64,000 nt of DNA, taken from contig OX031065.1 of NCBI GenBank assembly GCA_943736015.1, positions 23,202,427 to 23,266,426 of the forward strand, in the 5' to 3' direction. Below, one piece after another: positions 1 through 64,000 of the stretch. How positions within the stretch are numbered: position 1 is the stretch's first letter; every line of letters begins with the position of its first letter. Source of the stretch: Tridacna crocea (taxonomy: Eukaryota > Mollusca > Bivalvia > Cardiida > Cardiidae). Both the position numbers and the translations under genes were made by a program. Below the pieces are notes generated by a model that ran no database searches, was not told where the DNA came from, and was given only the letters and a program-made list of their open reading frames with translations.

Positions 1-25
1 GAGAAAGCTTTTGAAAATAATCTGA

Positions 26-66
26 GAAAAGGAGACAATGCAGGTTACCAGCATTTTCTCCTTTTC
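26..66. repeat. 41-bp near-perfect palindrome (cruciform candidate)
   Basis: The arm GAAAAGGAGA at 26-35 pairs with TCTCCTTTTC at 57-66, AATGC (37-41) pairs with GCATT (51-55), and GGT pairs with ACC around the central T at 46. Only two mismatched positions per arm (36/56 and 42/50) break an 18-bp complementary stem. I see it intact in the units I checked, always at unit base 26 to 66. It could extrude as a cruciform or form a hairpin in RNA; no function is shown. Confidence 0.9.
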
Positions 67-171
67 CCACAATGTTTTCTACCCTATCGAAGAAAAAATG
101 GATTATTGCTTATTCTTACGTCTTATTGTATCTTTATGGCCTATTTTCAAATTCTTCAAACTAGAACAAGA

Positions 172-182
172 TTTTTTTTTTT
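172..182. repeat. T-run
   Basis: Eleven T after CAAGA in most units. In units 6, 8, 10, 14 and 20 the preceding A is also T, giving CAAG followed by 12 T, which is a useful subfamily marker. Confidence 0.9.
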
Positions 183-198
183 AACTGGAAAAAGTTTC

Positions 199-329
199 CG
201 CAACAGCAACCCGTTGCTTCTGAATTCTATGTTTTTGCGCAGCAGTTAAACCTAACATTGACTTTTGACTCGCAAGGTCACCAAAATTGACCCTGGTAAG
301 AAAACAGGGAAACATTCGGTTTACCTTTC
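199..329 (+). repeat. Internal subrepeat R1 (degenerate)
   Basis: It aligns with R2 through GCAACAG (200 versus 340), GTTGCTTCTGAA versus GTTGCCTCCGAA, and TTTTGCGCAGCAGTTAAAC versus TTTTATGCGCAGCACGTAAC. It lacks about 16 bp between these anchors. It is the most worn of the six copies and its left limit is approximate. Confidence 0.65.
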
Positions 330-485
330 TTTGATTTGTGCAACAGGTAGCAGTTGCCTCCGAAAGTGTCCGAGTTGATTTTACAATTTTATGCGCAGCA
401 CGTAACCATCACGTATGGGGGACATAGTCATCGTAACCAAATCAATGGCCCTAGTGAGAGAAAACGAAAAAGAAAAATCCCTATG
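330..485 (+). repeat. Internal subrepeat R2
   Basis: It starts TTTGATTTGTGCAACAGG and carries GCGCAGCACGTAACC, then CACGTATGGGGGACATAGTC, matching R5 CACGTATGAAACGGTAGTC. It ends in GAGAGAAAACGAAAAAG. It is 156 bp to the start of the next copy. Confidence 0.75.
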
Positions 486-668
486 ATTGACTTGAATGAC
501 AGACCTGTCGTCTGCTACAAAATGTTCCATAAGTCCATGTTTCATGTTTTCGCGGACGCGTAAATGGAACCTATGAGACGGTAGTCAACGTAAATGGTTT
601 GTTGCCATGGTATAAAGACAACGGAGGGGAAAAAAAAAAAAAAAATGTCGGAAATTTTGTTCCCTACA
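486..668 (+). repeat. Internal subrepeat R3
   Basis: It starts with ATTGACTTGAATGACAG and contains CTGTCGTCTGC, TTTTCGCGGACGCGTAAATGG, CCTATGAGACGGTAGTCAACG and GGTATAAAGACAACGGAGGGG before the long A-run. It is closest to R4, with which it shares TGTCGTCTGC and the TATAAAGA sequence. Confidence 0.8.
630..645. repeat. Variable A-run within R3
   Basis: Sixteen A here; 15 to 20 A in other units, preceded by three, four or five G. In T4 units it is split by a G (7 A, G, 9 A). It accounts for most small differences in unit length. Confidence 0.95.
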
Positions 669-844
669 TTTGACTTAAGAAACATGTGTCGTCTGCCACG
701 AAATGTTCCCTGAGTCGATTTTTCATGTTTTTCGCGGATACGTAAGTGGCACCTATGAGAGACGGTAGTCTACGTAAATGGGTATGTCGTCACGGTATAA
801 AGAGATTGGAGAGAAAAAATATATTAGAAATTTAGTTCTCTTTG
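669..844 (+). repeat. Internal subrepeat R4
   Basis: It starts with TTTGACTTAAGAAAC and continues with TGTCGTCTGCCACGAAATG, TTTTTCGCGGATACGTAAG, GAGAGACGGTAGTCTACG and GGTATAAAGAGATTGG, in the same order as R3. It ends with a short A-run and TTCTCTTTG. Confidence 0.8.
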
Positions 845-1020
845 TTTGACTTATGCAGTTGCTACTGAAAGAGTCTTCAGTCTTTTTTTAGCCACTTGTC
901 ACATTATTTCCTGGTGTTTTCGCATGTGCGTAACTGGCACGTATGAAACGGTAGTCAATGTAACTGGGTTTCCTGTTGCGGTTTGAAGAGATTAGAAGAA
1001 TTACGCTTCAATGCCCTTTG
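845..1020 (+). repeat. Internal subrepeat R5
   Basis: It starts with TTTGACTTATGCAG. It contains CGCATGTGCGTAACTGGCAC, ACGGTAGTCAATGTAACTGG and GGTTTGAAGAGATTAG, aligning with R4 CGCGGATACGTAAGTGGCAC and GGTATAAAGAGATTGG. It lacks 10 bp near its start relative to R6 and R2. Confidence 0.8.
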
Positions 1021-1120
1021 TTTGATTCATGCAATAGGAATCAATTGCTACTGAAAGAGTATTCAGTCTTTTTTTAGCCACTTGTCACATTCATTTCTGG
1101 GTTTTTTGCACTGTACATTG
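1021..1120 (+). repeat. Internal subrepeat R6 (truncated)
   Basis: It starts with TTTGATTCATGCAATAGG. Its bases 1045-1091 match R5 859-905 over 47 bp with one mismatch. Similarity fades after TTTTTTGCACTG, so only the first half of the subrepeat is present. The right limit is approximate. Confidence 0.75.
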
Positions 1121-1329
1121 ATCATTTTGGCTTATTCAATGTGCAGAATTTAATGTGGTCTGAGTCAGAAAATCTAATTAAGGGATAAAGGGGCATCAAG
1201 GGTTTATTTCAAGGGAAGTAACTCTTGCAGGGGAGGCTTGAAAAGACCAAAACAAGGTCTTCTGCCACCCTGTTCTCTTAAATTTTGGCCCTTTTTCAGT
1301 GAAATCTGGCATGTGTGGATGGTGCATGC

Positions 1330-1344
1330 CTGGCAGTTTGCCAA
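1330..1344. promoter_or_regulatory. NFI-type palindrome
   Basis: CTGGCAGTTTGCCAA matches the established nuclear factor I consensus YTGGCA-N3-TGCCAR at every defined base. It appears in every complete unit. Binding is an inference; 15-bp matches can occur by chance. Confidence 0.35.
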
Positions 1345-1426
1345 GGACTGCACAGCAGCCTTCAAAGGAGACTTTAAATCCACTTTTATGCCGTTTTTTG
1401 TTCACTGTTTTCTATTGATATATTAG

Positions 1427-1438
1427 GGCGCCATTTTG
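1427..1438 (-). promoter_or_regulatory. YY1-like site
   Basis: On the minus strand this reads CAAAATGGCGCC, close to the YY1 consensus AANATGGCGGC with one mismatch. It lies about 30 bp from the first CCAAT box, an arrangement seen in TATA-less animal promoters reading leftward. Function is inferred only. Confidence 0.3.
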
Positions 1439-1454
1439 AAGTAATTTTCAAGCT

Positions 1455-1560
1455 CTCTGATTGGCTGATTGGGCCCAGCTTTGAATTTCTCGAAGCCTCT
1501 GATTGGCTGACTGGGCCCAGCTTTGAATTTCTCGAAGCCTCTGATTGGCTGACTGGGCCC
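1455..1560. repeat. 42-bp minisatellite with CCAAT boxes (three-copy form)
   Basis: Two full 42-bp copies starting CTCTGATTGGCTGA at 1455 and 1497, plus a 22-bp partial third at 1539. ATTGG (CCAAT on the minus strand) occurs at 1460, 1468, 1502 and 1544. The context TGATTGGCT fits the NF-Y consensus YSATTGGYY. In every complete unit this block ends 60 bp before the next unit start. Most units have this form. Confidence 0.92.
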
Positions 1561-1619
1561 CATGCTGATTTCCTTATTAACCTTTTACCACACAATGACG
1601 CCTTTTTACACACCCGAAA

Positions 1620-3236
1620 GAGAAAGCTTTTGAAAATAATCTGAGAAAAGGAGACAATGCAGGTTACCAGCATTTTCTCCTTTTCCCACAATGTTTTCTA
1701 CCCTATCGAAGAAAAAATGGATTATTGCTTATTCTTACGTCTTATTGTATCTTTATGGCCTATTTTCAAATTCTTCAAACTAGAACAAGATTTTTTTTTT
1801 TAACTGGAAAAGTTTCCGCAACAGCAACCCGTTGCTTCTGAATTCTATGTTTTTGCGCAGCAGTTAAACCTAACATTGACTTTTGACTCGCAAGGTCACC
1901 AAAATTGACCCTGGTAAGAAAACAGGGAAACATTCGGTTTACCTTTCTTTGATTTGTGCAACAGGTAGCAGTTGCCTCCGAAAGTGTCCGAGTTGATTTT
2001 ACAATTTTATGTGCAGCACGTAACCATCACGTATGGGGGACATAGTCATCGTAACCAAATCAATGGCCCTAGTGAGAGAAAACGAAAAAGAAAAATCCCT
2101 ATGATTGACTTGAATGACAGACCTGTCGTCTGCTACAAAATGTTCCATAAGTCCATGTTTCATGTTTTCGCGGATGCGTAAATGGAACCTATGAGATGGT
2201 AGTCAACGTAAATGGTTTGTTGCCATGGTATAAAGACAACGGAGGGGAAAAAAAAAAAAAAATGTCGGAAATTTTGTTCCCTACATTTGACTTAAGAAAC
2301 ATGTGTCGTCTGCCACGAAATGTTCCCTGAGTCGATTTTTCATGTTTTTCGCGGATACGTAAGTGGCACCTATGAGAGACGGTAGTCTACGTAAATGGGT
2401 ATGTCGTCACGGTATAAAGAGATTGGAGAGAAAAAATATATTAGAAATTTAGTTCTCTTTGTTTGACTTATGCAGTTGCTACTGAAAGAGTCTTCAGTCT
2501 TTTTTTAGCCACTTGTCACATTATTTCCTGGTGTTTTCGCATGTGCGTAACTGGCACGTATGAAACGGTAGTCAATGTAACTGGGTTTCCTGTTGCGGTT
2601 TGAAGAGATTAGAAGAATTACGCTTCAATGCCCTTTGTTTGATTCATGCAATAGGAATCAATTGCTACTGAAAGAGTATTCAGTCTTTTTTTAGCCACTT
2701 GTCACATTCATTTCTGGGTTTTTTGCACTGTACATTGATCATTTTGGCTTATTCAATGTGCAGAATTTAATGTGGTCTGAGTCAGAAAATCTAATTAAGG
2801 GATAAAGGGGCATCAAGGGTTTATTTCAAGGGAAGTAACTCTTGCAGGGGGGGCTTGAAAAGACCAAAACAAGGTCTTCTGCCACCCTGTTCTCTTAAAT
2901 TTTGGCCCTTTTTCAGTGAAATCTGGCATGTGTGGATGGTGCATGCCTGGCAGTTTGCCAAGGACTGCACAGCAGCCTTCAAAGGAGACTTTAAATCCAC
3001 TTTTATGCCGTTTTTTGTTCACTGTTTTCTATTGATATATTAGGGCGCCATTTTGAAGTAATTTTCAAGCTCTCTGATTGGCTGATTGGGCCCAGCTTTG
3101 AATTTCTCGAAGCCTCTGATTGGCTGACTGGGCCCAGCTTTGAATTTCTCGAAGCCTCTGATTAACTGACTGGGCCCCATGCTGATTTCCTTATTAACCT
3201 TTTACCACACAATGACGCCTTTTTACACACCCGAAA
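1620..3236 (+). repeat. Satellite unit 2 (T2)
   Basis: 1617 bp. T2 markers are GGAAAAGTTTCC with one A fewer and GAGATGG (T at 2197). ATGTGCAGC (T at 2012) is shared only with unit 25. Two changes at 3164-3165 turn the last ATTGG of the minisatellite into ATTAA, destroying a CCAAT box seen in the other units. Confidence 0.97.
3072..3177. repeat. 42-bp minisatellite with one CCAAT box destroyed
   Basis: Three-copy form in unit 2, but the last copy reads CTCTGATTAACTGAC, so ATTGG is lost. The change also puts a stop into the minus-strand frame that is open through the minisatellite in most other units. Confidence 0.9.
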
Positions 3237-12909: not shown

Positions 12910-14528
12910 GAGAAAGCTTTTGAAAATAATCTGAGAAAAGGAGACAATGCAGGTTACCAGCATTTTCTCCTTTTCCCACAATGTTTTCTACCCTATCGAA
13001 GAAAAAATGGATTATTGCTTATTCTTACGTCTTATTGTATCTTTATGGCCTATTTTCAAATTCTTCAAACTAGAACAAGATTTTTTTTTTTAACTGGAAA
13101 AAGTTTCCGCAACAGCAACCCGTTGCTTCTGAATTCTATGTTTTTGCGCAGCAGTTAAACCTAACATTGACTTTTGACTCGCAAGGTCACCAAAATTGAC
13201 CCTGGTAAGAAAACAGGGAAACATTCGGTTTACCTTTCTTTGATTTGTGCAACAGGTAGCAGTTGCCTCCGAAAGTGTCCGAGTTGATTTTACAATTTTA
13301 TGCGCAGCACGTAACCATCACGTATGGGGGACATAGTCATCGTAACCAAATCAATGGCCCTAGTGAGAGAAAACGAAAAAGAAAAATCCCTATGATTGAC
13401 TTGAATGACAGACCTGTCGTCTGCTACAAAATGTTCCATAAGTCCATGTTTCATGTTTTCGCGGATGCGTAAATGGAACCTATGAGACGGTAGTCAACGT
13501 AAATGGTTTGTTGCCATGGTATAAAGACAACGGAGGGGAAAAAAAGAAAAAAAAATGTCGGAAATTTTGTTCCCTACATTTGACTTAAGAAACATGTGTC
13601 GTCTGCCAGGAAATGTTCCCTGAGTCGATTTTTCATGTTTTTCGTGGATACGTAAGTGGCACCTATGAGAGACGGTAGTCTACGTAAATGGGTATGTCGT
13701 CACGGTATAAAGAGATTGGAGAGAAAAAATATATTAGAAATTTAGTTCTCTTTGTTTGACTTATGCAGTTGCTACTGAAAGAGTCTTCAGTCTTTTTTTA
13801 GCCACTTGTCACATTATTTCCTGGTGTTTTCGCATGTGCGTAACTGGCACGTATAAAACGGTAGTCAATGTAACTGGGTTTCCTGTTGCGGTTTGAAGAG
13901 ATTAGAAGAATTACGCTTCAATGCCCTTTGTTTGATTCATGCAATAGGAATCAATTGCTACTGAAAGAGTATTCAGTCTTTTTTTAGCCACTTGTCACAT
14001 TCATTTCTGGGTTTTTTGCACTGTACATTGATCATTTTGGCTTATTTAATGTGCAGAATTTAAAGTGGTCTGAGTCAGGAAATCTAATTAAGGGATAAAG
14101 GGGCATCAAGGGTTTATTTCAAGGGAAGTAACTCTTGCAGGGGGGCTTGAAAAGACCAAAACAAGGTCTTCTGCCACCCTGTTCTCTTAAATTTTGGCCC
14201 TTTTTCAGTGAAATCTGGCATGTGTGGATGGTGCATGCCTGGCAGTTTGCCAAGGACTGCACAGCAGCCTTCAAAGGAGACTTTAAATCCACTTTTATGC
14301 CGTTTTTTGTTCACTGTTTTCTATTGATATATTAGGGCGCCATTTTGAAGTAATTTTCAAGCTCTCTGATTGGCTGATTGGGCCCAGCTTTGAATTTCTC
14401 GAAGCCTCTGATTGGCTGACTGGGCCCAGCTTTGAATTTCTCGAAGCCTCTGATTGGCTGACTGGGCCCCATGCTGATTTCCTTATTAACCTTTTACCAC
14501 ACAATGACGCCTTTTTACACACCCGAAA
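12910..14528 (+). repeat. Satellite unit 9 (T4)
   Basis: 1619 bp. It has the G-interrupted A-run (13546), CCAGG (13609), CGTGG (13645), ATAAAACG (13855), TTATTTAATG (14047), AAAGTGG (14064), TCAGGAAAT (14079) and six G. I found no difference from unit 13. It opens the first four-unit block. Confidence 0.97.
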
Positions 14529-16148
14529 GAGAAAGCTTTTGAAAATAATCTGAGAAAAGGAGACAATGCAGGTTACCAGCATTTTCTCCTTTTCCCACAA
14601 TGTTTTCTACCCTATCTAAGAAAAAATGGATTATTGCTTATTCTTACGTCTTATTGTATCTTTATGGCCTATTTTCAAATTCTTCAAACTAGAACAAGTT
14701 TTTTTTTTTTAACTGGAAAAAGTTTCCGCAACAGCAACCCGTTGCTTCTGAATTCTATGTTTTTGCGCAGCAGTTAAACCTAACATTGACTTTTGACTCG
14801 CAAGGTCACCAAAATTGACCCTGGTAAGAAAACAGGGAAACATTCGGTTTACCTTTCTTTGATTTGTGCAACAGGTAGCAGTTGCCTCCGAAAGTGTCCG
14901 AGTTGATTTTACAATTTTATGCGCAGCACGTAACCATCACGTATGGGGGACATAGTCATCGTAACCAAATCAATGGCCCTAGTGAGAGAAAACGAAAAAG
15001 AAAAATCCCTATGATTGACTTGAATGACAGACCTGTCGTCTGCTACAAAATGTTCCATAAGTTCATGTTTCATGTTTTCACGGATGCGTAAATGGAACCT
15101 ATGAGACGGTAGTCAACGTAAATGGTTTGTTGCCATGGTATAAAGACAACGGAGGGGAAAAAAAAAAAAAAAAATGTCGGAAATTTTGTTCCCTACATTT
15201 GACTTAAGAAACATGTGTCGTCTGCCACGAAATGTTCCCTGAGTCGATTTTTCATGTTTTTCGCGGATACGTAAGTGGCACCTATGAGAGACGGTAGTCT
15301 ACGTAAATGGGTATGTCGTCACGGTATAAAGAGATTGGAGAGAAAAAATATATTAGAAATTTAGTTCTCTTTGTTTGACTTATGCAGTTGCTACTGAAAG
15401 AGTCTTCAGTCTTTTTTTAGCCACTTGTCACATTATTTCCTGGTGTTTTCGCATGTGCGTAACTGGCACGTATGAAACGGTAGTCAATGTAACTGGGTTT
15501 CCTGTTGCGGTTTGAAGAGATTAGAAGAATTACGCTTCAATGCCCTTTGTTTGATTCATGCAATAGGAATCAATTGCTACTGAAAGAGTATTCAGTCTTT
15601 TTTTAGCCACTTGTCACATTCATTTCTGGGTTTTTTGCACTGTACATTGATCATTTTGGCTTATTCAATGTGCAGAATTTAATGTGGTCTGAGTCAGAAA
15701 ATCTAATTAAGGGATAAAGGGGCATCAAGGGTTTATTTCAAGGGAAGTAACTCTTGCAGGGGGGGCTTGAAAAGACCAAAACAAGGTCTTCTGCCACCCT
15801 GTTCTCTTAAATTTTGGCCCTTTTTCAGTGAAATCTGGCATGTGTGGATGGTGCATGCCTGGCAGTTTGCCAAGGACTGCACAGCAGCCTTCAAAGGAGA
15901 CTTTAAATCCACTTTTATGCCGTTTTTTGTTCACTGTTTTCTATTGATATATTAGGGCGCCATTTTGAAGTAATTTTCAAGCTCTCTGATTGGCTGATTG
16001 GGCCCAGCTTTGAATTTCTCGAAGCCTCTGATTGGCTGACTGGGCCCAGCTTTGAATTTCTCGAAGCCTCTGATTGGCTGACTGGGCCCCATGCTGATTT
16101 CCTTATTAACCTTTTACCATACAATGACGCCTTTTTACACACCCGAAA
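14529..16148 (+). repeat. Satellite unit 10 (T5)
   Basis: 1620 bp. Variants are TATCTAAG (14617), the 12-base T-run, AGTTCATG (15063), TTCACGG (15080), a 17-base A-run and ACCATACAATG (16120). It pairs with units 14 and 20. Confidence 0.97.
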
Positions 16149-17759
16149 GAGAAAGCTTTTGAAAATAATCTGAGAAAAGGAGACAATGCAGGTTACCAGC
16201 ATTTTCTCCTTTTCCCACAATGTTTTCTACCCTATCGAAGAAAAAATGGATTATTGCTTATTCTTACGTCTTATTGTATCTTTATGGCCTATTTTCAAAT
16301 TCTTCAAACTAGAACAAGATTTTTTTTTTTAACTGGAAAAAGTTTCCGCATCAGCAACCCGTTGCTTCTGAATTCTATGTTTTTGCACGGCAGTTAAACC
16401 TAACATTGACTTTTGACTCGCAAGGTCACCAAAATTGACCCTGGTAAGAAAACAGGGAAACATTCGGTTTACCTTTCTTTGATTTGTGCAACAGGTAGCA
16501 GTTGCCTCCGAAAGTGTCCGAGTTGATTTTACAATTTTATGCGCAGCACGTAACCATCACGTATGGGGGACATAGTCATCGTAACCAAATCAATGGCCCT
16601 AGTGAGAGAAAACGAAAAAGAAAAATCCCTATGATTGACTTGAATGATAGACCTGTCGTCTGCTACAAAATGTTCCATAAGTCCATGTTTCAGCGGATGC
16701 GTAAATGGAACCTATGAGACGGTAGTCAACGTAAATGGTTTGTTGCCATGGTATAAAGATAACGGAGGGGAAAAAAAAAAAAAAATGTCGGAAATTTTGT
16801 TCCCTACATTTGACTTAAGAAACATGTGTCGTCTGCCACGAAATGTTCCCTGAGTCGATTTTTCATGTTTTTCGCGGATACGTAAGTGGCACCTATGAGA
16901 GACGGTAGTCTACGTAAATGGGTATGTCGTCACGGTATAAAGAGATTGGAGAGAAAAAATATATTAGAAATTTAGTTCTCTTTGTTTGACTTATGCAGTT
17001 GCTACTGAAAGAGTCTTCAGTCTTTTTTTAGCCACTTGTCACATTATTTCCTGGTGTTTTCGCATGTGCGTAACTGGCACGTATGAAACGGTAGTCAATG
17101 TAACTGGGTTTCCTGTTGCGGTTTGAAGAGATTAGAAGAATTACGCTTCAATGCCCTTTGTTTGATTCATGCAATAGGAATCAATTGCTACTGAAAGAGT
17201 ATTCAGTCTTTTTTTAGCCACTTGTCACATTCATTTCTGGGTTTTTTGCACTGTACATTGATCATTTTGGCTTATTCAATGTGCAGAATTTAATGTGGTC
17301 TGAGTCAGAAAATCTAATTAAGGGATAAAGGGGCATCAAGGGTTTATTTCAAGGGAAGTAACTCTTGCAGGGGGGGCTTGAAAAGACCAAAACAAGGTCT
17401 TCTGCCACCCTGTTCTCTTAAATTTTGGCCCTTTTTCAGTGAAATCTGGCATGTGTGGATGGTGCATGCCTGGCAGTTTGCCAAGGACTGCACAGCAGCC
17501 TTCAAAGGAGACTTTAAATCCACTTTTATGCCGTTTTTTGTTCACTGTTTTCTATTGATATATTAGGGCGCCATTTTGAAGTAATTTTCAAGCTCTCTGA
17601 TTGGCTGATTGGGCCCAGCTTTGAATTTCTCGAAGCCTCTGATTGGCTGAATGGGCCCAGCTTTGAATTTCTCGAAGCCTCTGATTGGCTGACTGGGCCC
17701 CATGCTGATTTCCTTATTAACCTTTTACCACACAATGACGCCTTTTTACACAACCGAAA
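16149..17759 (+). repeat. Satellite unit 11 (T6, 7-bp deletion)
   Basis: 1611 bp. TGTTTTC is lost after 16692, leaving TTTCAGCGG. Other variants are GCATCAGC (16351), GCACGGCAG (16387, 16389), GATAG (16648), AGATAACGG (16760), GCTGAATGGG (17651) and CAACCGAAAG (17753). Confidence 0.97.
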
Positions 17760-19336
17760 GAGAAAGCTTTTGAAAATAATCTGAGAAAAGGAGACAATGC
17801 AGGTTACCAGCATTTTCTCCTTTTCCCACAATGTTTTCTACCCTATCGAAGAAAAAATGGATTATTGCTTATTCTTACGTCTTATTGTATCTTTATGGCC
17901 TATTTTCAAATTCTTCAAACTAGAACAAGATTTTTTTTTTTAACTGGAAAAAGTTTCCGCAACAGCAACCCGTTGCTTCTGAATTCTATGTTTTTGCGCA
18001 GCAGTTAAACCTAACATTGACTTTTGACTCGCAAGGTCACCAAAATTGACCCTGGTAAGAAAACAGGGAAACATTCGGTTTACCTTTCTTTGATTTGTGC
18101 AACAGGTAGCAGTTGCCTCCAAAGTGTCCGAGTTGATTTTACAATTTTATGCGCAGCACGTAACCATCACGTATGGGGGACATAGTCATCGTAACCAAAT
18201 CAATGGCCCTAGTAAGAGAAAACGAAAAAGAAAAATCCCTATGATTGACTTGAATGACAGACCTGTCGTCTGCTACAAAATGTTCCATAAGTTCATGTTT
18301 CATGTTTTCGCGGATGCGTAAATGGAACCTATGAGACGGTAGTCAACGTAAATGGTTTGTTGCCATGGTATAAAGACAACGGAGGGAAAAAAAAAAAAAA
18401 AAAATTTCGGAAATTTTGTTCCCTACATTTGACTTAAGAAACATGTGTCGTCTGCCACGAAATGTTCCCTGAGTCGATTTTTCATGTTTTTCGCGGATAC
18501 GTAAGTGGCACCTATGAGAGACGGTAGTCTACGTAAATGGGTATGTCGTCACGGTATAAAGAGATTGGAGAGAAAAAATATATTAGAAATTTAGTTCTCT
18601 TTGTTTGACTTATGCAGTTGCTACTGAAAGAGTCTTCAGTCTTTTTTTAGCCACTTGTCACATTATTTCCTGGTGTTTTCGCATGTGCGTAACTGGCACG
18701 TATGAAACGGTAGTCAATGTAACTGGGTTTCCTGTTGCGGTTTGAAGAGATTAGAAGAATTACGCTTCAATGCCCTTTGTTTGATTCATGCAATAGGAAT
18801 CAATTGCTACTGAAAGAGTATTCAGTCTTTTTTTAGCCACTTGTCACATTCATTTCTGGGTTTTTTGCACTGTACATTGATCATTTTGGCTTATTCAATG
18901 TGCAGAATTTAATGTGGTCTGAGTCAGAAAATCTAATTAAGGGATAAAGGGGCATCAAGGGTTTATTTCAAGGGAAGTAACTCTTGCAGGGGGGGCTTGA
19001 AAAGACCAAAACAAGGTCTTCTGCCACCCTGTTCTCTTAAATTTTGGCCCTTTTTCTGTGAAATCTGGCATGTGTGGATGGTGCATGCCTGGCAGTTTGC
19101 CAAGGACTGCACAGCAGCCTTCAAAGGAGACTTTAAATCCACTTTTATGCCGTTTTTTGTTCACTGTTTTCTATTGATATATTAGGGCGCCATTTTGAAG
19201 TAATTTTCAAGCTCTCTGATTGGCTGATTGGGCCCAGCTTTGAATTTCTCGAAGCCTCTGATTGGCTGACTGGGCCCCATGCTGATTTCCTTATTAACCT
19301 TTTACCACACAATGACGCCTTTTTACACACCCGAAA
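17760..19336 (+). repeat. Satellite unit 12 (T7, two-copy minisatellite)
   Basis: 1577 bp. It has CCTCCAAAG (one G lost at 18120/18121), AGTAAGAG (18224), GTTCATG (18293), a three-G run then 18 A and TTTCGG, and TTTTTCTGTG (19057). The minisatellite has two copies (19214-19277). Confidence 0.97.
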
Positions 19337-20955
19337 GAGAAAGCTTTTGAAAATAATCTGAGAAAAGGAGACAATGCAGGTTACCAGCATTTTCTCCTTT
19401 TCCCACAATGTTTTCTACCCTATCGAAGAAAAAATGGATTATTGCTTATTCTTACGTCTTATTGTATCTTTATGGCCTATTTTCAAATTCTTCAAACTAG
19501 AACAAGATTTTTTTTTTTAACTGGAAAAAGTTTCCGCAACAGCAACCCGTTGCTTCTGAATTCTATGTTTTTGCGCAGCAGTTAAACCTAACATTGACTT
19601 TTGACTCGCAAGGTCACCAAAATTGACCCTGGTAAGAAAACAGGGAAACATTCGGTTTACCTTTCTTTGATTTGTGCAACAGGTAGCAGTTGCCTCCGAA
19701 AGTGTCCGAGTTGATTTTACAATTTTATGCGCAGCACGTAACCATCACGTATGGGGGACATAGTCATCGTAACCAAATCAATGGCCCTAGTGAGAGAAAA
19801 CGAAAAAGAAAAATCCCTATGATTGACTTGAATGACAGACCTGTCGTCTGCTACAAAATGTTCCATAAGTCCATGTTTCATGTTTTCGCGGATGCGTAAA
19901 TGGAACCTATGAGACGGTAGTCAACGTAAATGGTTTGTTGCCATGGTATAAAGACAACGGAGGGGAAAAAAAGAAAAAAAAATGTCGGAAATTTTGTTCC
20001 CTACATTTGACTTAAGAAACATGTGTCGTCTGCCAGGAAATGTTCCCTGAGTCGATTTTTCATGTTTTTCGTGGATACGTAAGTGGCACCTATGAGAGAC
20101 GGTAGTCTACGTAAATGGGTATGTCGTCACGGTATAAAGAGATTGGAGAGAAAAAATATATTAGAAATTTAGTTCTCTTTGTTTGACTTATGCAGTTGCT
20201 ACTGAAAGAGTCTTCAGTCTTTTTTTAGCCACTTGTCACATTATTTCCTGGTGTTTTCGCATGTGCGTAACTGGCACGTATAAAACGGTAGTCAATGTAA
20301 CTGGGTTTCCTGTTGCGGTTTGAAGAGATTAGAAGAATTACGCTTCAATGCCCTTTGTTTGATTCATGCAATAGGAATCAATTGCTACTGAAAGAGTATT
20401 CAGTCTTTTTTTAGCCACTTGTCACATTCATTTCTGGGTTTTTTGCACTGTACATTGATCATTTTGGCTTATTTAATGTGCAGAATTTAAAGTGGTCTGA
20501 GTCAGGAAATCTAATTAAGGGATAAAGGGGCATCAAGGGTTTATTTCAAGGGAAGTAACTCTTGCAGGGGGGCTTGAAAAGACCAAAACAAGGTCTTCTG
20601 CCACCCTGTTCTCTTAAATTTTGGCCCTTTTTCAGTGAAATCTGGCATGTGTGGATGGTGCATGCCTGGCAGTTTGCCAAGGACTGCACAGCAGCCTTCA
20701 AAGGAGACTTTAAATCCACTTTTATGCCGTTTTTTGTTCACTGTTTTCTATTGATATATTAGGGCGCCATTTTGAAGTAATTTTCAAGCTCTCTGATTGG
20801 CTGATTGGGCCCAGCTTTGAATTTCTCGAAGCCTCTGATTGGCTGACTGGGCCCAGCTTTGAATTTCTCGAAGCCTCTGATTGGCTGACTGGGCCCCATG
20901 CTGATTTCCTTATTAACCTTTTACCACACAATGACGCCTTTTTACACACCCGAAA
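19337..20955 (+). repeat. Satellite unit 13 (T4)
   Basis: 1619 bp. It carries the full T4 set, with G in the A-run at 19973, CCAGG at 20036 and CGTGG at 20072. It appears identical to unit 9, 6427 bp to the left. Confidence 0.97.
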
Positions 20956-22575
20956 GAGAAAGCTTTTGAAAATAATCTGAGAAAAGGAGACAATGCAGGT
21001 TACCAGCATTTTCTCCTTTTCCCACAATGTTTTCTACCCTATCTAAGAAAAAATGGATTATTGCTTATTCTTACGTCTTATTGTATCTTTATGGCCTATT
21101 TTCAAATTCTTCAAACTAGAACAAGTTTTTTTTTTTTAACTGGAAAAAGTTTCCGCAACAGCAACCCGTTGCTTCTGAATTCTATGTTTTTGCGCAGCAG
21201 TTAAACCTAACATTGACTTTTGACTCGCAAGGTCACCAAAATTGACCCTGGTAAGAAAACAGGGAAACATTCGGTTTACCTTTCTTTGATTTGTGCAACA
21301 GGTAGCAGTTGCCTCCGAAAGTGTCCGAGTTGATTTTACAATTTTATGCGCAGCACGTAACCATCACGTATGGGGGACATAGTCATCGTAACCAAATCAA
21401 TGGCCCTAGTGAGAGAAAACGAAAAAGAAAAATCCCTATGATTGACTTGAATGACAGACCTGTCGTCTGCTACAAAATGTTCCATAAGTTCATGTTTCAT
21501 GTTTTCACGGATGCGTAAATGGAACCTATGAGACGGTAGTCAACGTAAATGGTTTGTTGCCATGGTATAAAGACAACGGAGGGGAAAAAAAAAAAAAAAA
21601 ATGTCGGAAATTTTGTTCCCTACATTTGACTTAAGAAACATGTGTCGTCTGCCACGAAATGTTCCCTGAGTCGATTTTTCATGTTTTTCGCGGATACGTA
21701 AGTGGCACCTATGAGAGACGGTAGTCTACGTAAATGGGTATGTCGTCACGGTATAAAGAGATTGGAGAGAAAAAATATATTAGAAATTTAGTTCTCTTTG
21801 TTTGACTTATGCAGTTGCTACTGAAAGAGTCTTCAGTCTTTTTTTAGCCACTTGTCACATTATTTCCTGGTGTTTTCGCATGTGCGTAACTGGCACGTAT
21901 GAAACGGTAGTCAATGTAACTGGGTTTCCTGTTGCGGTTTGAAGAGATTAGAAGAATTACGCTTCAATGCCCTTTGTTTGATTCATGCAATAGGAATCAA
22001 TTGCTACTGAAAGAGTATTCAGTCTTTTTTTAGCCACTTGTCACATTCATTTCTGGGTTTTTTGCACTGTACATTGATCATTTTGGCTTATTCAATGTGC
22101 AGAATTTAATGTGGTCTGAGTCAGAAAATCTAATTAAGGGATAAAGGGGCATCAAGGGTTTATTTCAAGGGAAGTAACTCTTGCAGGGGGGGCTTGAAAA
22201 GACCAAAACAAGGTCTTCTGCCACCCTGTTCTCTTAAATTTTGGCCCTTTTTCAGTGAAATCTGGCATGTGTGGATGGTGCATGCCTGGCAGTTTGCCAA
22301 GGACTGCACAGCAGCCTTCAAAGGAGACTTTAAATCCACTTTTATGCCGTTTTTTGTTCACTGTTTTCTATTGATATATTAGGGCGCCATTTTGAAGTAA
22401 TTTTCAAACTCTCTGATTGGCTGATTGGGCCCAGCTTTGAATTTCTCGAAGCCTCTGATTGGCTGACTGGGCCCAGCTTTGAATTTCTCGAAGCCTCTGA
22501 TTGGCTGACTGGGCCCCATGCTGATTTCCTTATTAACCTTTTACCATACAATGACGCCTTTTTACACACCCGAAA
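20956..22575 (+). repeat. Satellite unit 14 (T5)
   Basis: 1620 bp. It matches unit 10 except for TTCAAACTC (A at 22408), a change I see in no other unit. Confidence 0.97.
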
Positions 22576-24186
22576 GAGAAAGCTTTTGAAAATAATCTGA
22601 GAAAAGGAGACAATGCAGGTTACCAGCATTTTCTCCTTTTCCCACAATGTTTTCTACCCTATCGAAGAAAAAATGGATTATTGCTTATTCTTACGTCTTA
22701 TTGTATCTTTATGGCCTATTTTCAAATTCTTCAAACTAGAACAAGATTTTTTTTTTTAACTGGAAAAAGTTTCCGCATCAGCAACCCGTTGCTTCTGAAT
22801 TCTATGTTTTTGCACGGCAGTTAAACCTAACATTGACTTTTGACTCGCAAGGTCACCAAAATTGACCCTGGTAAGAAAACAGGGAAACATTCGGTTTACC
22901 TTTCTTTGATTTGTGCAACAGGTAGCAGTTGCCTCCGAAAGTGTCCGAGTTGATTTTACAATTTTATGCGCAGCACGTAACCATCACGTATGGGGGACAT
23001 AGTCATCGTAACCAAATCAATGGCCCTAGTGAGAGAAAACGAAAAAGAAAAATCCCTATGATTGACTTGAATGATAGACCTGTCGTCTGCTACAAAATGT
23101 TCCATAAGTCCATGTTTCAGCGGATGCGTAAATGGAACCTATGAGACGGTAGTCAACGTAAATGGTTTGTTGCCATGGTATAAAGATAACGGAGGGGAAA
23201 AAAAAAAAAAAATGTCGGAAATTTTGTTCCCTACATTTGACTTAAGAAACATGTGTCGTCTGCCACGAAATGTTCCCTGAGTCGATTTTTCATGTTTTTC
23301 GCGGATACGTAAGTGGCACCTATGAGAGACGGTAGTCTACGTAAATGGGTATGTCGTCACGGTATAAAGAGATTGGAGAGAAAAAATATATTAGAAATTT
23401 AGTTCTCTTTGTTTGACTTATGCAGTTGCTACTGAAAGAGTCTTCAGTCTTTTTTTAGCCACTTGTCACATTATTTCCTGGTGTTTTCGCATGTGCGTAA
23501 CTGGCACGTATGAAACGGTAGTCAATGTAACTGGGTTTCCTGTTGCGGTTTGAAGAGATTAGAAGAATTACGCTTCAATGCCCTTTGTTTGATTCATGCA
23601 ATAGGAATCAATTGCTACTGAAAGAGTATTCAGTCTTTTTTTAGCCACTTGTCACATTCATTTCTGGGTTTTTTGCACTGTACATTGATCATTTTGGCTT
23701 ATTCAATGTGCAGAATTTAATGTGGTCTGAGTCAGAAAATCTAATTAAGGGATAAAGGGGCATCAAGGGTTTATTTCAAGGGAAGTAACTCTTGCAGGGG
23801 GGGCTTGAAAAGACCAAAACAAGGTCTTCTGCCACCCTGTTCTCTTAAATTTTGGCCCTTTTTCAGTGAAATCTGGCATGTGTGGATGGTGCATGCCTGG
23901 CAGTTTGCCAAGGACTGCACAGCAGCCTTCAAAGGAGACTTTAAATCCACTTTTATGCCGTTTTTTGTTCACTGTTTTCTATTGATATATTAGGGCGCCA
24001 TTTTGAAGTAATTTTCAAGCTCTCTGATTGGCTGATTGGGCCCAGCTTTGAATTTCTCGAAGCCTCTGATTGGCTGAATGGGCCCAGCTTTGAATTTCTC
24101 GAAGCCTCTGATTGGCTGACTGGGCCCCATGCTGATTTCCTTATTAACCTTTTACCACACAATGACGCCTTTTTACACAACCGAAA
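22576..24186 (+). repeat. Satellite unit 15 (T6, 7-bp deletion)
   Basis: 1611 bp. It has every T6 marker of unit 11, including GATAG, GCTGAATGGG and CAACCG. I found no difference between the two. Confidence 0.97.
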
Positions 24187-25763
24187 GAGAAAGCTTTTGA
24201 AAATAATCTGAGAAAAGGAGACAATGCAGGTTACCAGCATTTTCTCCTTTTCCCACAATGTTTTCTACCCTATCGAAGAAAAAATGGATTATTGCTTATT
24301 CTTACGTCTTATTGTATCTTTATGGCCTATTTTCAAATTCTTCAAACTAGAACAAGATTTTTTTTTTTAACTGGAAAAAGTTTCCGCAACAGCAACCCGT
24401 TGCTTCTGAATTCTATGTTTTTGCGCAGCAGTTAAACCTAACATTGACTTTTGACTCGCAAGGTCACCAAAATTGACCCTGGTAAGAAAACAGGGAAACA
24501 TTCGGTTTACCTTTCTTTGATTTGTGCAACAGGTAGCAGTTGCCTCCAAAGTGTCCGAGTTGATTTTACAATTTTATGCGCAGCACGTAACCATCACGTA
24601 TGGGGGACATAGTCATCGTAACCAAATCAATGGCCCTAGTAAGAGAAAACGAAAAAGAAAAATCCCTATGATTGACTTGAATGACAGACCTGTCGTCTGC
24701 TACAAAATGTTCCATAAGTTCATGTTTCATGTTTTCGCGGATGCGTAAATGGAACCTATGAGACGGTAGTCAACGTAAATGGTTTGTTGCCATGGTATAA
24801 AGACAACGGAGGGAAAAAAAAAAAAAAAAAATTTCGGAAATTTTGTTCCCTACATTTGACTTAAGAAACATGTGTCGTCTGCCACGAAATGTTCCCTGAG
24901 TCGATTTTTCATGTTTTTCGCGGATACGTAAGTGGCACCTATGAGAGACGGTAGTCTACGTAAATGGGTATGTCGTCACGGTATAAAGAGATTGGAGAGA
25001 AAAAATATATTAGAAATTTAGTTCTCTTTGTTTGACTTATGCAGTTGCTACTGAAAGAGTCTTCAGTCTTTTTTTAGCCACTTGTCACATTATTTCCTGG
25101 TGTTTTCGCATGTGCGTAACTGGCACGTATGAAACGGTAGTCAATGTAACTGGGTTTCCTGTTGCGGTTTGAAGAGATTAGAAGAATTACGCTTCAATGC
25201 CCTTTGTTTGATTCATGCAATAGGAATCAATTGCTACTGAAAGAGTATTCAGTCTTTTTTTAGCCACTTGTCACATTCATTTCTGGGTTTTTTGCACTGT
25301 ACATTGATCATTTTGGCTTATTCAATGTGCAGAATTTAATGTGGTCTGAGTCAGAAAATCTAATTAAGGGATAAAGGGGCATCAAGGGTTTATTTCAAGG
25401 GAAGTAACTCTTGCAGGGGGGGCTTGAAAAGACCAAAACAAGGTCTTCTGCCACCCTGTTCTCTTAAATTTTGGCCCTTTTTCTGTGAAATCTGGCATGT
25501 GTGGATGGTGCATGCCTGGCAGTTTGCCAAGGACTGCACAGCAGCCTTCAAAGGAGACTTTAAATCCACTTTTATGCCGTTTTTTGTTCACTGTTTTCTA
25601 TTGATATATTAGGGCGCCATTTTGAAGTAATTTTCAAGCTCTCTGATTGGCTGATTGGGCCCAGCTTTGAATTTCTCGAAGCCTCTGATTGGCTGACTGG
25701 GCCCCATGCTGATTTCCTTATTAACCTTTTACCACACAATGACGCCTTTTTACACACCCGAAA
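24187..25763 (+). repeat. Satellite unit 16 (T7, two-copy minisatellite)
   Basis: 1577 bp. It matches unit 12, including the one-base loss in CCTCCAAAG, the 18-base A-run and TTTCGG. Its minisatellite is at 25641-25704. Confidence 0.97.
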
Positions 25764-59578: not shown

Positions 59579-61198
59579 GAGAAAGCTTTTGAAAATAATC
59601 TGAGAAAAGGAGACAATGCAGGTTACCAGCATTTTCTCCTTTTCCCACAATGTTTTCTACCCTATCGAAGAAAAAATGGATTATTGCTTATTCTTACGTC
59701 TTATTGTATCTTTATGGCCTATTTTCAAATTCTTCAAACTAGAACAAGATTTTTTTTTTTAACTGGAAAAAGTTTCCGCAACAGCAACCCGTTGCTTCTG
59801 AATTCTATGTTTTTGCGCAGCAGTTAAACCTAACATTGACTTTTGACTCGCAAGGTCACCAAAATTGACCCTGGTAAGAAAACAGGGAAACATTCGGTTT
59901 ACCTTTCTTTGATTTGTGCAACAGGTAGCAGTTGCCTCCGAAAGTGTCCGAGTTGATTTTACAATTTTATGCGCAGCACGTAACCATCACGTATGGGGGA
60001 CATAGTCATCGTAACCAAATCAATGGCCCTAGTGAGAGAAAACGAAAAAGAAAAATCCCTATGATTGACTTGAATGACAGACCTGTCGTCTGCTACAAAA
60101 TGTTCCATAAGTCCATGTTTCATGTTTTCGCGGATGCGTAAATGGAACCTATGAGACGGTAGTCAACGTAAATGGTTTGTTGCCATGGTATAAAGACAAC
60201 GGAGGGGAAAAAAAAAAAAAAAAATGTCGGAAATTTTGTTCCCTACATTTGACTTAAGAAACATGTGTCGTCTGCCACGAAATGTTCCCCGAGTCGATTT
60301 TTCATGTTTTTCGCGGATACGTAAGTGGCACCTATGAGAGACGGTAGTCTACGTAAATGGGTATGTCGTCACGGTATAAAGAGATTGGAGAGAAAAAATA
60401 TATTAGAAATTTAGTTCTCTTTGTTTGACTTATGCAGTTGCTACTGAAAGAGTCTTCAGTCTTTTTTTAGCCACTTGTCACATTATTTCCTGGTGTTTTC
60501 GCATGTGCGTAACTGGCACGTATGAAACGGTAGTCAATGTAACTGGGTTTCCTGTTGCGGTTTGAAGAGATTAGAAGAATTACGCTTCAATGCCCTTTGT
60601 TTGATTCATGCAATAGGAATCAATTGCTACTGAAAGAGTATTCAGTCTTTTTTTAGCCACTTGTCACATTCATTTCTGGGTTTTTTGCACTGTACATTGA
60701 TCATTTTGGCTTATTCAATGTGCAGAATTTAATGTGGTCTGAGTCAGAAAATCTAATTAAGGGATAAAGGGGCATCAAGGGTTTATTTCAAGGGAAGTAA
60801 ATCTTGCAGGGGGGGCTTGAAAAGACCAAAACAAGGTCTTCTGCCACCCTGTTCTCTTAAATTTTGGCCCTTTTTCAGTGAAATCTGGCATGTGTGGATG
60901 GTGCATGCCTGGCAGTTTGCCAAGGACTGCACAGCAGCCTTCAAAGGAGACTTTAAATCCACTTTTATGCCGTTTTTTGTTCACTGTTTTCTATTGATAT
61001 ATTAGGGCGCCATTTTGAAGTAATTTTCAAGCTCTCTGATTGGCTGATTGGGCCCAGCTTTGAATTTCTCGAAGCCTCTGATTGGCTGACTGGGCCCAGC
61101 TTTGAATTTCTCGAAGCCTCTGATTGGCTGACTGGGCCCCATGCTGATTTCCTTATTAACCTTTTACCACACAATGACGCCTTTTTACACACCCGAAA
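59579..61198 (+). repeat. Satellite unit 38 (T0)
   Basis: 1620 bp. It has TTCCCCGAG (60290) and GTAAATCTTGC (60801, private). Confidence 0.97.
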
Positions 61199-62818
61199 GA
61201 GAAAGCTTTTGAAAATAATCTGAGAAAAGGAGACAATGCAGGTTACCAGCATTTTCTCCTTTTCCCACAATGTTTTCTACCCTATCGAAGAAAAAATGGA
61301 TTATTGCTTATTCTTACGTCTTATTGTATCTTTATGGCCTATTTTCAAATTCTTCAAACTAGAACAAGATTTTTTTTTTTAACTGGAAAAAGTTTCCGCA
61401 ACAGCAACCCGTTGCTTCTGAATTCTATGTTTTTGCGCAGCAGTTAAACCTAACATTGACTTTTGACTCGCAAGGTCACCAAAATTGACCCTGGTAAGAA
61501 AACAGGGAAACATTCGGTTTACCTTTCTTTGATTTGTGCAACAGGTAGCAGTTGCCTCCGAAAGTGTCCGAGTTGATTTTACAATTTTATGCGCAGCACG
61601 TAACCATCACGTATGGGGGACATAGTCATCGTAACCAAATCAATGGCCCTAGTGAGAGAAAACGAAAAAGAAAAATCCCTATGATTGACTTGAATGACAG
61701 ACCTGTCGTCTGCTACAAAATGTTCCATAAGTCCATGTTTCATGTTTTCGCGGATGCGTAAATGGAACCTATGAGACGGTAGTCAACGTAAATGGTTTGT
61801 TGCCATGGTATAAAGACAACGGAGGGGAAAAAAAAAAAAAAAAATGTCGGAAATTTTGTTCCCTACATTTGACTTAAGAAACATGTGTCGTCTGCCACGA
61901 AATGTTCCCTGAGTCGATTTTTCATGTTTTTCGCGGATACGTAAGTGGCACCTATGAGAGACGGTAGTCTACGTAAATGGGTATGTCGTCACGGTATAAA
62001 GAGATTGGAGAGAAAAAATATATTAGAAATTTAGTTCTCTTTGTTTGACTTATGCAGTTGCTACTGAAAGAGTCTTCAGTCTTTTTTTAGCCACTTGTCA
62101 CATTATTTCCTGGTGTTTTCGCATGTGCGTAACTGGCACGTATGAAACGGTAGTCAATGTAACTGGGTTTCCTGTTGCGGTTTGAAGAGATTAGAAGAAT
62201 TACGCTTCAATGCCCTTTGTTTGATTCATGCAATAGGAATCAATTGCTACTGAAAGAGTATTCAGTCTTTTTTTAGCCACTTGTCACATTCATTTCTGGG
62301 TTTTTTGCACTGTACATTGATCATTTTGGCTTATTCAATGTGCAGAATTTAATGTGGTCTGAGTCAGAAAATCTAATTAAGGGATAAAGGGGCATCAAGG
62401 GTTTATTTCAAGGGAAGTAACTCTTGCAGGGGGGGCTTGAAAAGACCAAAACAAGGTCTTCTGCCACCCTGTTCTCTTAAATTTTGGCCCTTTTTCAGTG
62501 AAATCTGGCATGTGTGGATGGTGCATGCCTGGCAGTTTGCCAAGGACTGCACAGCAGCCTTCAAAGGAGACTTTAAATCCACTTTTATGCCGTTTTTTGT
62601 TCACTGTTTTCTATTGATATATTAGGGCGCCATTTTGAAGTAATTTTCAAGCTCTCTGATTGGCTGATTGGGCCCAGCTTTGAATTTCTCGAAGCCTCTG
62701 ATTGGCTGACTGGGCCCAGCTTTGAATTTCTCGAAGCCTCTGATTGGCTGACTGGGCCCCATGCTGATTTCCTTATTAACCTTTTACCACACAATGACGC
62801 CTTTTTACACACCCGAAA
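61199..62818 (+). repeat. Satellite unit 39 (T0, closest to common sequence)
   Basis: 1620 bp with a 17-base A-run. I found no private substitution, so it is a good stand-in for the consensus of the right-hand part. Confidence 0.97.
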
Positions 62819-64000
62819 GAGAAAGCTTTTGAAAATAATCTGAGAAAAGGAGACAATGCAGGTTACCAGCATTTTCTCCTTTTCCCACAATGTTTTCTAC
62901 CCTATCGAAGAAAAAATGGATTATTGCTTATTCTTACGTCTTATTGTATCTTTATGGCCTATTTTCAAATTCTTCAAACTAGAACAAGATTTTTTTTTTT
63001 AACTGGAAAAAGTTTCCGCAACAGCAACCCGTTGCTTCTGAATTCTATGTATTTGCGCAGCAGTTAAACCTAACATTGACTTTTGACTCGCAAGGTCACC
63101 AAAATTGACCCTGGTAAGAAAACAGGGAAACATTCGGTTTACCTTTCTTTGATTTGTGCAACAGGTAGCAGTTGCCTCCGAAAGTGTCCGAGTTGATTTT
63201 ACAATTTTATGCGCAGCACGTAACCATCACGTATGGGGGACATAGTCATCGTAACCAAATCAATGGCCCTAGTGAGAGAAAACGAAAAAGAAAAATCCCT
63301 ATGATTGACTTGAATGACAGACCTGTCGTCTGCTACAAAATGTTCCATAAGTCCATGTTTCATGTTTTCGCGGATGCGTAAATGGAACCTATGAGACGGT
63401 AGTCAACGTAAATGGTTTGTTGCCATGGTATAAAGACAACGGAGGGGAAAAAAAAAAAAAAAAATGTCGGAAATTTTGTTCCCTACATTTGACTTAAGAA
63501 ACATGTGTCATCTGCCACGAAATGTTCCCCGAGTCGATTTTTCATGTTTTTCGCGGATACGTAAGTGGCACCTATGAGAGACGGTAGTCTACGTAAATGG
63601 GTATGTCGTCACGGTATAAAGAGATTGGAGAGAAAAAATATATTAGAAATTTAGTTCTCTTTGTTTGACTTATGCAGTTGCTACTGAAAGAGTCTTCAGT
63701 CTTTTTTTAGCCACTTGTCACATTATTTCCTGGTGTTTTCGCATGTGCGTAACTGGCACGTATGAAACGGTAGTCAATGTAACTGGGTTTCCTGTTGCGG
63801 TTTGAAGAGATTAGAAGAATTACGCTTCAATGCCCTTTGTTTGATTCATGCAATAGGAATCAATTGCTACTGAAAGAGTATTCAGTCTTTTTTTAGCCAC
63901 TTGTCACATTCATTTCTGGGTTTTTTGCACTGTACATTGATCATTTTGGCTTATTCAATGTGCAGAATTTAATGTGGTCTGAGTCAGAAAATCTAATTAA
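62819..64000 (+). repeat. Satellite unit 40 (partial, cut by window edge)
   Basis: The first 1182 bp of a unit. It stops shortly before the mollusc-like motif and lacks the minisatellite. Changes are TGTATTTGCG (63051), TGTCATCTG (63510) and TTCCCCGAG (63530). The array continues beyond the window. Confidence 0.97.

What the first reader, a model, noticed from the sequence alone, without database searches (positions are those of the whole stretch)
1..64000. A 64-kb stretch made only of a 1.62-kb satellite unit
Forty same-direction copies fill the window with no unique DNA, gene or intact transposon. A unit this long, kept at about 99% identity by my reading, is much longer than the typical 150-350 bp satellite. 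It is a candidate for a major centromeric or heterochromatic satellite that may not be described.
Basis: partly seen in the sequence, partly recalled or inferred. Interest (0 to 1): 0.7.

Follow-up and report, generated by a model that had tools for sequence, protein, structure and literature searches.

The report
Long satellite repeat with transposon-derived end
This stretch is part of a roughly half-megabase block of one 1.6-kb DNA sequence repeated head to tail, a local version of a large satellite family in this invertebrate genome that contains a fragment of an old jumping gene; the kind is well known, though this family may not have been described.

Summary
The window is 39 full copies and one 1182-bp part copy of a ~1.62-kb unit, all on one strand, with no other DNA. 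Full copies average 99.6% identity.
It lies inside a ~0.55-0.60 Mb block on chromosome-size contig C10 of a 1.05-Gb genome. A junction typical of this block occurs 328 times, all on one strand; the 100 places listed are all on C10.
Units sampled at ten other loci are 81-92% identical. Arrays are seen on C1, C2, C6 and C9, shorter runs on C8. A 39-base core occurs 5034 times exactly, 13846 times with up to 2 mismatches, about 2% of the genome by my estimate.
Each unit carries about 150 bp of a dispersed TTAA-flanked, probably piggyBac-like miniature transposon, ~184-bp internal repeats, a better-conserved ~90-bp block and 42-bp repeats.
Best reading: a chromosome-specific subfamily of a satellite, homogenised locally. 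Centromere function is possible, unproven. Long units are not exceptional in bivalves (28-8637 bp in one oyster). Ordinary in kind; novelty of the family could not be tested.

The parts
1..64000 (+). Part of the C10 satellite array: 39 full units and one partial unit, all head to tail
   Evidence: genome place G000:C10:23202427-23266426
61199..62818 (+). Reference unit, 1620 bp (coordinates 'unit 1-1620' in this report)
62776..62958 (+). Left part of a dispersed TTAA-flanked miniature transposon: TTAA plus terminal repeat at 62776 (unit 1578), then an imperfect palindrome (unit 13-79, window 62831-62897); spans the join of two units. The 3' limit is approximate
   Evidence: alignment with 54 dispersed matches in five 10-kb probes and 6 full-length copies; palindrome 80.6% over 67 bp
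61676..62306 (+). Internal imperfect repeats of ~184 bp, about 3.4 copies
   Evidence: unit 478-921 versus 662-1108, 69.7% identity, E 1.6e-49; copies aligned
62506..62595 (+). Better-conserved block, unit 1308-1397, containing the 39-mer counted genome-wide (unit 1309-1347)
   Evidence: windows of 30 bp: 95.7, 96.7 and 93.3% mean identity among 11 units; biased upward by how 9 of the 10 comparison units were chosen
62642..62759 (+). 42-bp repeats, 2.8 copies, with GATTGG (CCAAT-type) motifs; copy number varies between units
   Evidence: TRF; motif positions; length variants
62775..62776 (+). Junction typical of the C10 subfamily: ~80 bp present here in units of other arrays are missing
   Evidence: junction sequences compared; 328 exact matches, all forward, none on C1-C9; 100 places listed, all C10
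12910..25763 (+). Recent tandem duplication of a four-unit block: units 9-12 (12910-19336) and 13-16 (19337-25763)
   Evidence: units 9=13, 11=15 and 12=16 identical, unit 10 versus 14 99.94%

Best explanation
The window is the inside of a ~0.55-0.60 Mb array of a chromosome-specific subfamily of an abundant satellite family in an invertebrate genome. Shown: head-to-tail order, near-identity within the array, a junction so far seen only on C10, related but divergent units in arrays on other chromosomes, more divergent units at the array's left edge, a recent four-unit duplication, and a transposon-derived piece in each unit. Inferred: the ancestral unit arose when a piggyBac-like miniature element lay beside (or inserted next to) older short tandem repeats and the composite was then amplified. 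Each array is kept uniform by unequal crossing over or conversion within the locus, while new arrays are seeded elsewhere by rearrangement or excised circles. Its most likely role is as passive heterochromatin; some arrays may serve as centromere or pericentromere DNA. It encodes no detectable protein or known RNA.
For: Complete tiling by same-strand units. Mean pairwise identity 99.57% and an identical or near-identical four-unit block duplication. The C10 junction 35-mer has 328 forward and 0 reverse matches; the 100 listed, in contig order, all lie on C10 from 23,062,095. At the left edge units fall to 86-98% and the outermost keep a longer junction (L062), as expected if homogenisation is strongest inside. 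Other arrays have other spacings: ~1643 bp on C2:8.15 Mb, a mix of ~1847, 2222 and 2448 on C6:52.18, ~1687 on C2:55.1, ~1640 on C9:4.9, ~1666 on C1:24.9, ~1833 on C9:8.8. Ten sampled units from other loci are 81.5-92.1% identical to the C10 unit. Core counts 5034 exact and 13846 at <=2 mismatches, control 0. Transposon piece; its first bases TTAACCC[A/T]TT recur as paired ends around an uninterrupted piggyBac-transposase frame at two loci, L058 and L061.
Against: Chromosome mapping is partial, because each pattern search lists only about the first 100 places; 228 of the 328 junction places were not listed, and C11-C18 were hardly seen. The arrays at C8 and C9:8.8 Mb were not sampled for identity. 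The right terminal repeat of the miniature element was not found in the unit (up to 4 substitutions), so founder or insertion is unresolved. Four of six piggyBac loci scanned showed no such paired ends. No chromatin, read-depth or cytological data.
Confidence: 0.85

Rival explanations
1. The arrays are the functional centromeres: each chromosome carries its own subfamily, and CENP-A sits on the large one.
For: Large, internally uniform array at about 40% of C10, with a junction so far seen only there; the C1 array at 24.84 to at least 25.02 Mb of 77.2 Mb is also large.
Against: C2 has arrays at 8.15-8.32 Mb and at 55.07 to about 55.49 Mb; C9 at 4.86-5.20 (reverse), 5.39 (forward) and 8.77-8.94 Mb. 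Exact 39-mer hits on C3, C4 and C5 are only 2, 1 and 1, but this is weak: C1 has none and still holds a large array of a variant, and the C3 copy at 25.40 Mb sits in a tandem run that leaves the fetched 5 kb at both ends (L026). No 17-bp CENP-B box, or its core, in the unit, also weak because many species lack it.
Confidence: 0.25
2. The unit is a complete non-autonomous DNA transposon, mobilised as a 1.6-kb element and only secondarily tandem.
For: One end is a TTAA-flanked terminal repeat shared with dispersed miniature elements; a two-unit run on C5 (L028) and a partial copy on C4 (L027) lie outside long arrays.
Against: No right terminal repeat found in the unit; the partial copy on C4 starts and stops inside the unit without TTAA ends; most of the places listed lie in arrays.
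Confidence: 0.08
3. A ribosomal or small-RNA gene spacer array.
For: Long unit with internal subrepeats resembles spacer anatomy (recalled, no call).
Against: No Rfam match at gathering score in 64 kb; in a 3.5-kb piece only two matches to one unrelated family, 18.8 bits against a 44-bit cut-off; no tRNA.
Confidence: 0.02

Closest known systems
Transposon-related satellite DNAs of oysters (Crassostrea, Ostrea satellitomes; PMC11136912, passages)
   Same: Abundant satellites with transposon-derived sequence; wide range of unit lengths (28-8637 bp in C. angulata); FISH patterns interspersed or pericentromeric
   Different: The passages seen stress Helitron central repeats; here it is the end of a TTAA-flanked element. 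No sequence comparison was possible
CedS4 of the cockle Cerastoderma edule, named there as the major heterochromatic satellite (PMC11126487, passages)
   Same: Major satellite of bivalve heterochromatin
   Different: No sequence or unit length seen; relationship untested, and host relatedness is only guessed
piggyBac-type miniature elements (MITEs)
   Same: TTAA at both ends in 5 of 6 full-length dispersed copies (the copies were picked with a motif that includes TTAA); ends begin TTAACCC[A/T]TT like piggyBac-transposase elements L058 and L061
   Different: The satellite unit keeps only the left part and does not look mobile. Kolobok elements also use TTAA (recalled), so the superfamily is not certain
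Chromosome-specific subfamilies of alphoid-like satellites (recalled)
   Same: Local homogenisation, chromosome-specific variants, divergent edge
   Different: Unit about 10 times longer than a ~171-bp monomer; no regular higher-order period found, only a local four-unit duplication

Membership tests
Satellite DNA | Long head-to-tail arrays of a non-coding unit | tested here: met
Satellite DNA | High copy number and concerted evolution (within-array identity above between-array identity) | tested here: met
   13846 core matches at <=2 mismatches; 99.6% within the window against 81-92% to units of ten other loci
Satellite DNA | Heterochromatic location | not testable with these tools
   no chromatin or cytology
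Centromeric satellite | Bound by CENP-A | not testable with these tools
   no ChIP data
Centromeric satellite | One main block on every chromosome | tested here: inconclusive
   several blocks on C2 and C9; other chromosomes only partly seen, since listings are cut at about 100 places
piggyBac-like MITE (dispersed relative) | TTAA target duplication and terminal inverted repeats | tested here: met
   5 of 6 full-length copies have TTAA at both ends; copies were found with a motif containing TTAA, up to 4 substitutions
piggyBac-like MITE (the 1.62-kb unit itself) | Both terminal repeats present | tested here: not met
   left end only; no right end found at up to 4 substitutions
rDNA or small-RNA gene spacer | RNA gene in or beside the unit | tested here: not met
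BIV160 and Helitron-related bivalve satellites | Sequence similarity to the named family | not tested
   no repeat library or family sequence available; the name BIV160 is recalled

The most novel reading that the evidence does not exclude
An undescribed satellite superfamily, built on the end of a piggyBac-like miniature transposon, supplies chromosome-specific centromere DNA in this genome, and the ~90-bp conserved block (unit 1308-1397) is kept by selection as a protein-binding site.
Probability: 0.12. Interest if true: 0.55.

Novelty: new member of a known kind. Interest (0 to 1): 0.3.

Why it matters
It gives a mapped, sequence-resolved satellite family with locus-specific subfamilies, long units and a visible transposon contribution. 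That is useful for placing centromeres and heterochromatin in an unnamed, apparently molluscan, genome and for studying how transposon pieces enter satellites. It does not by itself change what is known about satellites.

Tried and rejected
rDNA/small-RNA spacer: rejected. Coding unit: the seven distinct frames of at least 70 aa hit no Pfam model. Complete transposon: disfavoured for lack of a right end. CENP-B box: none found with up to 4 substitutions, nor its core. A regular higher-order period: identity between units at distances 1-16 is flat, 0.9951-0.9964, so only a local four-unit duplication was found.

Sampling the family by a rare substitution in the core gave only 10 places, on C6, C9, C10, C12, C13 and C16; it shows family members on C12, C13 and C16 but not whether they form arrays.

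The core's apparent conservation is partly ascertainment: 9 of the 10 comparison units were found through matches inside it. C22, met by chance, gives 100, 96.7 and 96.7% to the C10 unit in the three block windows, but the first counts only 19 shared positions because C22 lacks 11 bases there, and three other windows (unit 18, 48 and 1068) also reach 96.7-100%.

Species naming failed. Two paper searches on assembly size and mitochondrial length found no paper. Listings on bivalve genome notes (40 of 806), giant-clam genomes (15 of 21) and 18-chromosome bivalves (12 of 270) settled nothing. The numbers here (18 large contigs, 1.049 Gb, 29,009-bp mitochondrial contig) resemble giant clams (T. 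derasa 1,060.2 Mb, 18 pseudomolecules, 24.95 kb; abstract in listing) without equalling them.

Literature: searches of open PMC papers on bivalve or clam satellites listed 20 of 173, 20 of 34, 12 of 87 and 12 of 87 papers; no title or abstract start in those listings names a ~1.6-kb satellite of this build. This is not a claim that it is unpublished.

Full report
Observation. BLAST of the unit 61199-62818 against the window tiles it end to end with 39 full copies and a last copy of 1182 bp, all plus strand. Tandem Repeats Finder, with its 500-bp limit on period, reports only the 42-bp repeats nested in the unit (33 rows, two of them for one unit). Aligned to each other, the 39 full units average 99.57% identity with gaps excluded (99.05-100%). 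Seven are 1577-1578 bp long because they lack one 42-bp repeat. There is no Rfam match at gathering score, no tRNA and no Pfam match at E<=0.1 in the seven distinct reading frames of at least 70 aa.

Place and extent. The window is G000:C10:23202427-23266426 in a 1,048,827,098-base, 31-contig assembly. Contigs C1-C18 are 40-77 Mb; the 8 smaller nuclear contigs checked are 14-57 kb; C31 is a 29,009-bp mitochondrial contig. Its COX1 reads open under the mitochondrial codes 4, 5 and 9. I favour code 5, the invertebrate one, because it gives the expected conserved residues, and the protein looks bivalve; both are recall. Ten-kb probes are fully satellite at C10 23.10, 23.15, 23.19, 23.27, 23.31, 23.36 and 23.46 Mb, and hold only short miniature-element matches at 22.20, 22.70, 23.00, 23.76 and 24.26 Mb. 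The left edge is near 23,055,716, where units drop to 86-98% identity (L062). The array is present at 23.600-23.603 Mb and gone at 23.660 Mb (L066, L063). If unbroken between probes it is about 0.55-0.60 Mb, some 340-370 units. The script extrapolates 373 units and an end at 23.665 Mb, slightly beyond the empty probe.

Family. An exact 39-mer from the unit occurs 2467 times forward and 2567 times reverse, control 0; with up to 2 mismatches, 7034 + 6812 = 13846. If each belongs to a ~1.65-kb unit this is about 23 Mb or 2.2% of the assembly (arithmetic). Fragments would lower this figure; copies with indels in the 39-mer, such as that on C22, would raise it. A junction typical of the window's units occurs 328 times, all forward; the 100 places listed, in contig order, are all on C10, so none lies on C1-C9. 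The other 228 were not listed, but the array's length and the density of the listed places predict roughly that number on C10 alone.

Other arrays. C1 24.84 to at least 25.02 Mb. C2 8.15-8.32 and 55.07-55.23, with samples at 55.30 (L065) and 55.49 also satellite. C6 from 52.18. C9 4.86-5.05 reverse and 5.39 forward, with a sample at 5.20 Mb reverse (L064), so the strand flips between 5.20 and 5.39 Mb; and C9 8.77-8.94 reverse. C8 has runs of 8 core matches at 22.17 and 4 at 15.30. Pieces at C2 67.74 and C3 25.40 are tandem and run off both ends of the 5 kb fetched (L025, L026). Unplaced contig C22 begins in the same family. Ten units from other loci are 81.5-92.1% identical to the C10 unit; the C1 sample comes from the edge of its array. 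Each pattern search lists only about its first 100 places, so C11-C18 remain nearly unseen; single core variants were met on C12, C13 and C16.

Anatomy. From its TTAA (unit 1578) the unit starts with about the left 150 bp of a dispersed miniature element. The five 10-kb probes outside the array hold 54 matches to that end region, most recognisable as copies of the element, a few of them overlapping pieces of one copy. Six full-length copies were compared; 5 of 6 have TTAA at both ends, though the motif used to pick them contains TTAA. Of six piggyBac-transposase loci scanned, two (L058, L061) have paired ends TTAACCCATTTATGCC and TTAACCCTTTATATAC around the transposase frame, sharing TTAACCC[A/T]TT with the miniature element; the other four do not show paired ends, and no locus carries the full miniature terminal repeat around its transposase. 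L061 also holds a nearby miniature element. piggyBac is thus the best superfamily guess; Kolobok also uses TTAA (recalled). The unit then has ~3.4 copies of a ~184-bp repeat (unit 478-1108), a block at unit 1308-1397 with 93-97% mean identity among 11 units, and GATTGG-bearing 42-bp repeats. The other-array units whose junctions were read, on C2 (two loci) and C6, have ~80 extra bases before the TTAA.

Conservation caveat. Nine of the ten comparison units were found through matches inside the conserved block, so its conservation is biased upward. C22 was met by chance and gives 100, 96.7 and 96.7% there, but over only 19 shared positions in the first window, since 11 bases are missing. Of the 54 windows three others also reach 96.7-100%, two of them in the miniature-element palindrome. 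This is a lead, not a result.

Mechanism. Shown: near-identity inside, divergence at the left edge, a recent four-unit duplication (units 9-12 and 13-16), and array-specific variants. These fit unequal crossing over within each array, an established satellite process. Inferred: founding by a composite of a transposon end and short repeats, and spread to other chromosomes. Not shown: any function.

Centromere question. For: one large uniform array at about 40% of C10, and a large one on C1. Against: several blocks on C2 and C9 and a strand flip on C9. Few exact core hits on C3 (2), C4 (1) and C5 (1) count for little, because C1 has none and still holds a large array. I put centromere function at about 0.25.

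Comparison with print. Satellite units of Crassostrea angulata span 28-8637 bp, and 51 of its satellites resemble Repbase repeats (PMC11136912, passages). A T. crocea survey found satellites the commonest annotated repeat class (PMC9140397, passages). A cockle has CedS4 as its major heterochromatic satellite (PMC11126487, passages). No sequence of these could be compared. The finding is a new member of a known kind, of modest interest.

Noticed in passing
C10 around 22.2-24.3 Mb, loci L007, L009-L012, L063: Dense dispersed TTAA-flanked miniature elements of ~228 bp with a palindromic centre, from 2 (L011) to 20 (L007) matches per 10 kb in the five probes
   Followed up: partly
G000:C9 4.86-5.41 Mb (L052, L064, L053): The satellite changes strand between 5.20 and 5.39 Mb, while one unit from each side is 98.9% identical, suggesting an inverted arrangement
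   Followed up: partly
G000:C6 52.18-52.21 Mb (L029): Spacings of about 1847, 2222 and 2448 bp occur in mixed order in this array, a possible higher-order pattern
   Followed up: no
G000:C31 (L022-L024): 29,009-bp mitochondrial contig, large for an animal
   Followed up: no
G000, piggyBac transposase PF13843 (118 matches, 116 of 196 candidates scored): 26 near-full-length matches without internal stops, several with equal scores on different contigs, suggesting recent piggyBac activity
   Followed up: partly
First 60 bases of C1, C7-C9, C11-C18 (L031-L042): The 12 chromosome-size contigs checked at base 1 all begin with N, so their ends could not be checked for telomere repeats
   Followed up: no
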